Shown one piece after another: positions 2,989 through 18,168 of a stretch of DNA of 64,000 nt. Under the pieces are notes generated by a model. That model was given only the letters and a program-made list of their open reading frames with translations. It had not been told where the DNA came from and did no database searches. Numbering within the stretch: position 1 is the first letter of the stretch; every line of letters begins with the position of its first letter. The translations under genes were made by a program, and so were the position numbers. The stretch comes from a virus, in the IMG/VR virus record IMGVR_UViG_3300042486_001390, positions 26,565 to 90,564 of that record, one strand, 5' to 3'.

Positions 2989-3345
2989 TTAAAGACTCAA
3001 ACAATCCTTTAAATTTAACGTTTCTCCATCCTTTTTGAATTTTGAGAAAAGTTGTAACTCACCGTTAATACGTTTTGTGGTTTGTTTATCAATAGTTCCT
3101 ATGCCTTGAGTTAAGGAATCCGAAAAAGTCTTACAGTCTTGCGTGTAAGTTTTTTGAATAAACCACTGCCCGCAATTGCAGTCTTTCTCGTCTATTATGT
3201 ATTTTATCTGAAAAAATACCCATTCTACGCCATGATAATTAATATTTGCCGAGAAATCTGAGTAACTCTTCCAAAACTTACACTCTCTTTCACTTGGACT
3301 AAAAACGTTTAGAACTTGTTCTTGAAACTCTTGAAATGATAGCAT
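2989..3345 (-). CDS. Hypothetical small protein (118 aa)
   Basis: Unrecognised soluble protein with several aromatic residues and Cys pairs (CNCGQW, TQDCKTF, LKDCLSL). A ribosome site (GGGAGTAATT) precedes ATG 3345. It is the last of the accessory cluster transcribed toward the tail module and sits next to another small gene starting from the same kind of GAGGTAATTATG leader. Confidence 0.55.
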   Translation of the reverse strand: MLSFQEFQEQVLNVFSPSERECKFWKSYSDFSANINYHGVEWVFFQIKYIIDEKDCNCGQWFIQKTYTQDCKTFSDSLTQGIGTIDKQTTKRINGELQLFSKFKKDGETLNLKDCLSL

Positions 3346-3652: not shown

Positions 3653-4423
3653 CTAATTGTCGCAGACTACCCGAAAACCATTATCGTAGTAGCGGTAGTC
3701 GCGACGGTCTTCGTAGCAGCGGTAAGCGGAACGGCAGTAAATCGGATAGTTGTACCAGGAACCACCCCGCAGACAACTATCTTTGCACCACTCCCAAACA
3801 TTACCATTCATGTCATATAGTCCCCAACCATTGGGCTTTTTCTGTCCTACGGGATGAGTTGTGTTATTAGAATTTCCGTCATACCAAGCATAATCTCCTA
3901 ACTGATTGACATCATCACCAAAATAATAGCGAGTGGTTGTCCCCGCACGACAAGCATATTCCCATTCCGCTTCTGTGGGTAGGCGATAGGTTTTCCCGGT
4001 TATTTGACTCAATTTCTGACAAAAGGCTTGAGCATCGTCCCAACTAACCTTTTCTACGGGATTTTGGGGATTATTTTTGAAGTAAGAAGGATTGGTTTCC
4101 ATTACCGCTTCATATTGTGCCTGAGTAATGGGATATTTTCCAATCTTAAAACTGTTGACTTTAACTTGGTGTTGAGGATTTTCATCATCACTAGCATCGG
4201 GATCACTATCAGGAGATCCCATGAGAAACTCACCTGCTGGTAAGCTTACCATTTCTAATGCGATTTGATTGGGTAGTTTTTCGGTCATCGTGAACTCCTT
4301 ACTCCTAAATGTTTTGTGTTCTAAACCCGCAAGTTTAGCTAACTCAACCAGATCATCTGTATCTGCATTAGCAAGACGCAGGTATAGTTCTTCAACTTCT
4401 CGAATAAAATCTGCATCACTCAT
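3653..4423 (-). CDS. FGE-sulfatase / C-type-lectin-fold protein, DGR-type variable target
   Basis: A 256-residue protein. Residues about 55-215 match the formylglycine-generating-enzyme-like fold: MVSLPAGEFLMGS, KYPITQAQYEAVM, NPVEKVSWDDAQAFC, YRLPTEAEWEYACRAGT, GLYDMNGNVWEWC. The loop usually found between GNVWEWC and RGGSW is almost absent. The last 40 residues (LRGGSW...GFRVVCDN) form the ligand-binding end used by DGR target proteins; most varying positions are encoded by TAC, TGC or GAC, as expected from adenine mutagenesis of AAC codons. It probably displays a hypervariable binding surface. No RT or template repeat is visible here. A ribosome site TTTAGGACTAAC precedes ATG 4423. The C-terminal homologue is at 17641-18168. 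Confidence 0.85.
   Translation of the reverse strand: MSDADFIREVEELYLRLANADTDDLVELAKLAGLEHKTFRSKEFTMTEKLPNQIALEMVSLPAGEFLMGSPDSDPDASDDENPQHQVKVNSFKIGKYPITQAQYEAVMETNPSYFKNNPQNPVEKVSWDDAQAFCQKLSQITGKTYRLPTEAEWEYACRAGTTTRYYFGDDVNQLGDYAWYDGNSNNTTHPVGQKKPNGWGLYDMNGNVWEWCKDSCLRGGSWYNYPIYCRSAYRCYEDRRDYRYYDNGFRVVCDN
3656..3770 (-). other. Putative DGR variable region VR1
   Basis: Extends from the RGGSW codons to the GGTTTTCGGGTAGT block shared exactly with the second target gene. Seven of eight Tyr codons here are TAC in an otherwise TAT-preferring genome, consistent with A-to-N mutagenesis of AAC in a template. This is inferred; no template repeat was found in the window. Confidence 0.55.
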
Positions 4424-17198: not shown

Positions 17199-17585
17199 CT
17201 AGGGCTTTTGTAAAAACAAACAGCCTAAAACATTTGAGGGGTTAGACTCATCCCGGACGATTGCACCGGGGGCAAGGCAGTCCGTCCGTCCTTGTTTACT
17301 AGCGGCCGCCGCCACTAGCCCAGAGACAATGTAGAAAGTTTCCCCGTCTGCATCTGGTAGCCCCTCAATATCCCCGTAAATAACGGTTTCTACTGGGATA
17401 CCGTCAATGGGTTCTGCGGGTTCGTTGGACATTTTAACTCGCGGGAGAATCCCCGATGCGGGAATTTCCTTAAGAATCACAATCTTCTCTTTGTTTCCCA
17501 GAAACTGTTTCTTTGCATCTTGGGTGATGCCAGCTTCTTTGTTTAATATGGTGATAGTGTGAGGGGTTGCGTTGACAATAGCCAT
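17199..17585 (-). CDS. Conserved NATPHTITI-type protein
   Basis: 128 residues from ATG 17585 behind TAGGAGTAAAAACC. MAIVNATPHTITIL, IPASGILPRV, IPVETVIYGDIEGLPD and FYIVSGLVAAAA...RTDCLAPGAIVRDES follow the motif order of a widespread phage and bacterial family that opens with LTPH. Function unknown. An upstream in-frame ATG at 17648 would read through the spacer and is rejected. Confidence 0.65.
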   Translation of the reverse strand: MAIVNATPHTITILNKEAGITQDAKKQFLGNKEKIVILKEIPASGILPRVKMSNEPAEPIDGIPVETVIYGDIEGLPDADGETFYIVSGLVAAAASKQGRTDCLAPGAIVRDESNPSNVLGCLFLQKP

Positions 17586-17609
17586 GGTTTTTACTCCTAA
17601 ATAATTGTT

Positions 17610-17637
17610 AGCTGACAACTGATAACTGATAACTAAT
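17610..17637. repeat. Heptanucleotide spacer (family representative)
   Basis: GACAACTGATAACTGATAACTAA-type tandem heptamers. Equivalent spacers are near 4457, 6488, 14506, 15302, 16765, 18196, 18576, 33470, 38497, 59045, 59364, 59871 and 61461. They sit after a stop codon and before an AGGAGTAAAAACC leader. Confidence 0.8.
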
Positions 17638-17640
17638 TTA

Positions 17641-18168
17641 TTAATCACAAACTACCCGAAAACCAATATTACGCCAGCGACATTTTTCAAAATAGTAACT
17701 GAGTTGTGCCGCACAACATTCATAGGAGCAGGTATCGAATCCGCCCCCACGGGGAACGTTTTGACACCATTCCCAGACGTTGCCGTGCATATCGTACAAT
17801 CCCCAATTGTTAGGTAATTTCTGACCCACAGGATGAGTTATTAATCCAGAATTATCTTCGTACCAAGCGTAATCTTTTAGCTGATCGAAATCATTACCAA
17901 AGCTAAATAGGGTTTCTGTACCAGCGCGACAAGCATATTCCCATTCTGAATTTGTAGGTAGGCGATAGTTTTTCCCTGTTATTCGTCTCAATTTCTGGTA
18001 AAAAGCTATAGCGTCGTCATAACTAACTTGTTCTACTGGATTTTGGGGTTTGTGCATAAAATAAGAGGGGTTGTTTCCCATTACCTCTTGATATTGTTCT
18101 TGAGTTATTGGATATTTCCCAATTTTAAAGGTTACGTTCGGAATCTCTATCATTTCAATCTCAATCAT
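17641..18168 (-). CDS. Short FGE-fold protein, second DGR-type target
   Basis: A 175-residue shortened version of the protein at 3653-4423. It lacks the N-terminal 70 residues, starting at FKIGKYPITQEQYQEVM, but keeps NPVEQVSYDDAIAFYQKL, YRLPTNSEWEYACRAGTE, LYDMHGNVWEWCQ and the RGG...GFRVVCD end. Between RGG and GFRVV nearly every residue differs from the first target, while flanks are well conserved, a pattern expected of independently diversified variable regions. TTTAGGAGCC precedes ATG 18168. It probably displays a variable binding surface. Confidence 0.82.
   Translation of the reverse strand: MIEIEMIEIPNVTFKIGKYPITQEQYQEVMGNNPSYFMHKPQNPVEQVSYDDAIAFYQKLRRITGKNYRLPTNSEWEYACRAGTETLFSFGNDFDQLKDYAWYEDNSGLITHPVGQKLPNNWGLYDMHGNVWEWCQNVPRGGGFDTCSYECCAAQLSYYFEKCRWRNIGFRVVCD
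17645..17753 (-). other. Putative DGR variable region VR2
   Basis: Ends with the same GGTTTTCGGGTAGTxTGxGA block as VR1 but differs in most intervening codons, with no frame disruption. No template repeat was found in the window. Confidence 0.5.

What the first reader, a model, noticed from the sequence alone, without database searches (positions are those of the whole stretch)
3653..4423. DGR-type hypervariable target protein without a visible reverse transcriptase
The C-terminus has the FGE/C-type-lectin end (RGGSW...GFRVV) with Tyr, Cys and Asp codons (TAC, TGC, GAC) that fit adenine mutagenesis of AAC template codons. No RT or template repeat lies in the window, so diversification would depend on an element elsewhere in the phage or on a host DGR acting in trans.
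Basis: partly seen in the sequence, partly recalled or inferred. Interest (0 to 1): 0.75.

Follow-up and report, generated by a model that had tools for sequence, protein, structure and literature searches.

The report
Phage genes rewritten by host retroelement
Viruses of the bloom-forming cyanobacterium Microcystis carry shortened copies of a host sensor gene whose variable tip bears the marks of the host's own targeted-mutation machine, although the viruses themselves lack that machine.

Summary
ORF 3653-4423 (minus) is a 256-aa FGE/C-type-lectin protein; its nearest solved relative is the DGR variable protein TvpA. It lies in a 90.5-kb Microcystis-phage-like record. No RT or template repeat was found in that record, or (RT model) in about 60 related records including eight complete isolates. 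Four Microcystis genomes carry the missing parts: template repeats of AAC codons, each beside a DGR-type RT. The window VR differs from the closest template at 13/31 adenines and 7/74 other bases. Other phage VRs match a host template at 75-76 of 76 non-adenine bases. In Ma-LMM01-like phages the same gene, with 97-99% identical flanks, has VRs differing at 11 template adenines and 0 other bases, or 17 and 2. So VRs were rewritten inside phage lineages that lack the machinery; a host DGR acting in trans is the best explanation. VRs are otherwise stable between near-identical contigs, so rewriting is episodic. Host homologues fuse this domain to kinase, caspase or CHAT-NACHT domains; phage copies are effector-less. 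A decoy role is plausible but untested. I found no earlier report of a host DGR writing phage genes.

The parts
3653..4423 (-). DGR-type target gene: 256-aa FGE/C-type-lectin protein without an effector domain
3662..3766 (-). Variable region aligned to the host template repeats (GGSW...GFRVVC)
3680..3754 (-). Core of variable codons YNYPIYCRSAYRCYEDRRDYRYYDN (13 template adenines changed)
3662..3679 (-). Constant 3' end GGTTTTCGGGTAGTCTGC, identical to the 3' end of host templates T3 and T4 (candidate homing-initiation end; inferred)
3665..4255 (-). FGE-sulfatase domain (PF03781)
4307..4423 (-). N-terminal module of 39 aa, 92% identical to the start of a Microcystis gene near CHAT-type genes
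2989..3345 (-). Small gene close downstream; 38% identical to the gene directly downstream of the target in a Ma-LMM01-like phage (possible partner)
17641..18168 (-). Second FGE paralogue, 175 aa, by eye without the NNC codon pattern

Best explanation
The gene is a DGR target carried by a Microcystis phage that lacks the DGR itself. Its VR was written by the host's DGR acting in trans on phage DNA: host RT and host template RNA make adenine-mutated cDNA, which replaces the phage VR. Shown: adenine-specific VR differences; matching templates beside intact RT frames in Microcystis; no RT found in phage records and no template in those scanned; VR-only rewriting between phage genomes with near-identical flanks. 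Inferred: that the transfer happens in infected cells through the host RT. Inferred more weakly: the protein is an effector-less copy of host DGR-diversified sensor proteins and works as a decoy or competitor against them (about 0.35).
For: Host templates T1-T4, three of them beside intact 352-356-aa RT frames (T2-T4), the fourth beside a 357-aa RT frame. Phage VRs L017 and L063 match T4 at 75/76 non-A bases, with 17 and 16 of 29 adenines changed. L272 and L274 match T4 at 76/76. Same locus, flanks 97-99% identical: L272 v L274, 11 A and 0 non-A differences, p 1e-7; L274 v L283, 17 and 2, p 4e-10. L272 v L283 have 1 mismatch in 325 bp upstream and 2 in about 330 bp downstream. Those contigs are 85-91% identical to lytic Ma-LMM01/MaMV phages, whose complete genomes have no RT and no template. 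No RT in further related contigs. T2-T4 template core absent from IMG/VR. Template type of the VR is nearly independent of gene-body phylogeny: 15 changes, shuffled mean 17.4. Host homologues carry kinase, caspase C14 or CHAT-NACHT.
Against: The window VR has 7 non-A mismatches to the nearest template, so its own template was not found. Near-identical contigs, and the isolates CH01, DL01, DH01 and DC, share identical VRs, so rewriting is rare or selected against. L272 and L274 share their last variable codons, which simple 3'-primed homing would replace; recombination between VRs must also occur. No complete relative of the window's own phage lineage was available. Short recombination tracts from host VR genes are not strictly excluded. 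The decoy role has no direct test.
Confidence: 0.7

Rival explanations
1. VRs were diversified only while the gene lay in host chromosomes; phages picked up finished VR alleles by homologous recombination and now carry them as fixed alleles.
For: Phage and host gene bodies intermix in the tree and are up to 95% identical. VRs are stable in near-identical phages. L263's gene region is 97% identical to a host gene.
Against: Replaced tracts are limited to the VR, with near-identical phage flanks on both sides. In several phages T4-type VRs sit in gene bodies unlike the host genes that flank the T4 template. Template types switch within a phage-only clade.
Confidence: 0.22
2. The phages carry, or recently carried, their own DGR in an unsequenced part of the genome.
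For: The window record and many contigs are fragments. Phages with their own DGR are common in general (PMC8144416).
Against: Eight complete Microcystis phage genomes have no RT and no template. A viral-contig scan found only two relatives of the Microcystis RT, 47% identical. The template core was absent from IMG/VR.
Confidence: 0.06
3. Ordinary positive selection on a receptor-binding loop, without any DGR.
For: C-type-lectin variable proteins are phage receptor-binding proteins in BPP-1-type systems; the window gene lies near tail-completion genes.
Against: Differences fall on template adenines and spare third codon bases, which selection alone does not predict. Mic1's homologue gp45 is a middle gene, not a late one (PMC11237433).
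Confidence: 0.02

Closest known systems
Remote (trans) DGR targets in cyanobacteria and Thiohalocapsa (PMC7517822, PMC10907252)
   Same: C-type-lectin target genes away from the RT; VR matches a distant template at non-adenine bases
   Different: There RT, template and target lie in one cellular genome; here the target lies in a lytic phage and the machinery in its host
BPP-1-type phage DGR (Mtd)
   Same: Phage gene with a C-type-lectin VR changed at template adenines
   Different: BPP-1 encodes its own RT and template and varies a tail protein; here neither is on the phage and no tail role is shown
T. denticola TvpA (2y3c)
   Same: FGE-type C-type-lectin variable protein; best sequence and fold match
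   Different: TvpA is a bacterial protein of a bacterial DGR; the window protein is phage-borne with a distinct N-terminal module
DGR-linked conflict proteins of cyanobacteria (VMAP ternary and STAND/NACHT systems; PMC7159879, PMC10907252)
   Same: Same FGE sensor domain with VR; Microcystis homologues fuse it to NACHT/CHAT, caspase, kinase or GUN4
   Different: Phage copies lack the effector part

Membership tests
DGR variable protein (target) | C-type-lectin/FGE fold with the variable stretch at the C-terminal end | tested here: met
DGR variable protein (target) | VR differs from a template repeat mainly at template adenines | tested here: met
   Window 13/31 A v 7/74 non-A, p 3e-4; relatives 17/29 v 1/76, 12/29 and 13/29 v 0/76
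DGR variable protein (target) | Perfect template match at non-adenine bases | tested here: inconclusive
   Met in relatives L272 and L274; the window copy has 7 mismatches to the closest template found
Complete DGR | Reverse transcriptase in the same genome | tested here: not met
Complete DGR | Template repeat in the same genome | tested here: not met
Host DGR acting in trans on a phage | RT and matching template in the host genus | tested here: met
Host DGR acting in trans on a phage | VR rewriting during infection that depends on the host RT | not testable with these tools
   Needs an infection experiment
Serine/threonine kinase (database name of Ma-LMM01 gp037 and gp062 and MaMV-DC ORF40) | Kinase domain | tested here: not met
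   Only PF03781 found in the window homologue
Formylglycine-generating enzyme | Catalytic cysteine pair and copper site | not tested
   -
Effector-less decoy of a host conflict protein | Binds the ligand or partner of the host protein and blocks its output | not testable with these tools
   Only domain architecture supports it

The most novel reading that the evidence does not exclude
Lytic Microcystis phages use the host's DGR as a shared mutagenesis service: during infection host RT and template rewrite phage-borne copies of the host's immune-type sensor domain, giving phages a renewable set of effector-less decoys against DGR-diversified kinase, caspase and NLR-like defences.
Probability: 0.3. 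Interest if true: 0.95.

Novelty: new variant of a known kind. Interest (0 to 1): 0.8.

Why it matters
DGR surveys start from the RT and miss RT-less targets (PMC8144416 says remote targets go undetected). If a host DGR writes phage genes, one mutagenesis machine serves both sides of an arms race. It would also offer a handle on what DGR-diversified sensor proteins of cyanobacteria recognise, which is open, in a host with cultured phages already at hand. It corrects a long-standing database name too: the 'kinases' of Ma-LMM01 and its relatives are FGE-type variable proteins.

Tried and rejected
A template search inside the window found nothing. PF00078 detects DGR RTs weakly; phrog_1423 also matches group II intron RTs, so hits were separated by frame length and by the LPIGNLTSQ motif. 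Close pairs among the first 79 viral loci did not show adenine-only change; most had identical VRs. The decisive pairs came from a second gene class found with a template-shaped pattern. A column-variability test by codon position was weak (p 0.04). The L260/L263 pair was set aside as possible recent host capture. No Pfam family was found for the host gene sharing the N-terminal module. The T1-T4 labels come from only four host templates, so type assignment is coarse. The pattern used would miss template T1 and a template with CGTCGC, which the window VR suggests.

Full report
What is there. The window is part of a 90,564-base virus record related to Microcystis phages. ORF 3653-4423 on the minus strand encodes 256 aa. 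Pfam gives one family, FGE-sulfatase, E 4e-51. By sequence the best solved structure is Treponema denticola variable protein 1, 2y3c, E 3e-28, aligned up to the GFR end. A predicted model (mean pLDDT 83) finds the same entry first by fold, E 3e-18. PHROGs calls the family 'kinase', as do the Ma-LMM01 annotations, but there is no kinase domain.

Codon signature. In the VR, pyrimidine-ending codons are 16 NNC to 7 NNT; in the rest of the gene they are 25 to 79, p 1e-4. About 60 distinct phage VRs share the pattern NNC/NNT around fixed codons. At the shared locus, differences between phage relatives are 4-5 times more frequent in the VR than in the upstream gene at codon positions 1 and 2, but only 1.4 times at position 3.

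Missing parts. No RVT_1 match in the window's record or 34 related records. No phrog_1423 match at E up to 10 in 26 of them, in 8 complete isolates (Ma-LMM01, MaMV-DC, DH01, CH01, CH02, DL01, DL02, Mic1), or in 12 and 16 further records, a few of them repeats. No template core in 19 of the phage records within 3 mismatches nor exactly anywhere in IMG/VR. The window's record has no stretch that matches the VR at non-A positions.

Where the parts are. Microcystis genomes carry DGR-type RTs. Four loci show an RT beside a template repeat of AAC codons: T1 (L217 8731-8826), T2 (L218 5806-5904), T3 (L219 6520-6618), T4 (L220 6820-6918). RT frames at L218, L219 and L220 are intact, 352-356 aa, with the LPIGNLTSQ motif. 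Host targets in the same loci match their template at 0-1 non-A mismatches.

Template against phage VRs. Over all distinct VRs of the first set, phage VRs differ from the best host template at 53% of adenines and 11% of other bases; host VRs at 48% and 5%, the four template copies themselves being counted among the host sequences. The window: 13/31 and 7/74, p 3e-4. L017: 17/29 and 1/76, p 5e-11. L063: 16/29 and 1/76.

Same locus, different VR. About 40 contigs share the window's gene order with an FGE gene at the same place, yet carry VRs of different template types. Window-type L001 against L035 has 1 mismatch in the 300 bp after the VR and 28 in the 105 bp of the VR. On the gene-body tree the template type is nearly random (15 changes, shuffled mean 17.4), while phage or host origin is clustered (6 changes, shuffled 16.1). 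One supported phage-only clade holds three template types.

The decisive test. A template-shaped pattern led to a second FGE gene class in contigs 85-91% identical to Ma-LMM01 and MaMV phages. L272 and L274 have flanks 98-99% (600 bp upstream) and 98% (400 bp downstream) identical; their VRs differ at 11 bases, all template adenines (p 1e-7), and both match T4 at all 76 other bases. L274 and L283 differ at 17 adenines and 2 other bases (p 4e-10). L272 and L283 have 1 mismatch in 325 bp before the VR and 2 in about 330 bp after it. In isolates, the Ma-LMM01 VR (gp062) differs from these at 15-23 adenines and 3-5 other bases in most comparisons.

Tempo. Most near-identical contigs have identical VRs, and CH01, DL01, DH01 and DC share the gp062-type VR. 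Rewriting is episodic at the level of assemblies.

Function. Host homologues are large proteins: kinase plus up to five FGE domains, caspase C14, CHAT-NACHT/NB-ARC, GUN4. Such proteins are proposed antigen sensors of conflict systems (PMC10907252, PMC7159879). The phage proteins are single FGE domains. The window protein adds 39 aa that are 92% identical to the start of a Microcystis gene near CHAT-type genes (the CHAT naming of the neighbour is by eye). Mic1's homologue gp45 is a middle gene (PMC11237433). A decoy or competitor fits; a receptor-binding role is less likely; neither is shown.

Novelty. Trans targets are known within one cellular genome (PMC7517822, PMC10907252). Roux et al. state that their survey would miss remote targets (PMC8144416). 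Searches of the held open-access library found no report of phage-borne targets of a host DGR; subscription journals and most preprints are not held.

Noticed in passing
L223 4797-9812 (-) and L080 1-4314: Microcystis proteins with five tandem FGE domains, each ending in its own VR, in one open frame of 1672 aa (L223, with a kinase-like start) or 1438 aa (L080).
   Followed up: partly
L056, L058, L059: Ma-LMM01-like contigs with arrays of up to seven FGE genes with different VRs in about 5 kb.
   Followed up: partly
window 17199-18168 (-): Second FGE paralogue (17641-18168) directly followed by a gene (17199-17648) that looks like Ma-LMM01 gp061, which likewise directly follows FGE gene gp062: a conserved pair of unknown function.
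   Followed up: no
window 2989-3345 (-) and L269 4552-4953 (-): A small gene of phrog_28949 type lies downstream of DGR-type FGE genes in two unlike phage groups (38% identity).
   Followed up: partly
L015, L016, L017, L048: FGE genes whose frame runs past the usual stop after CDN (CDNQM...), in contrast to near relatives that stop there.
   Followed up: no
L263: Virus contig with an XRE-type regulator-like ORF and a possible Mu-type transposase-like ORF (by eye) whose FGE gene region is 97% identical to a Microcystis gene: a likely recent host-to-phage transfer.
   Followed up: no
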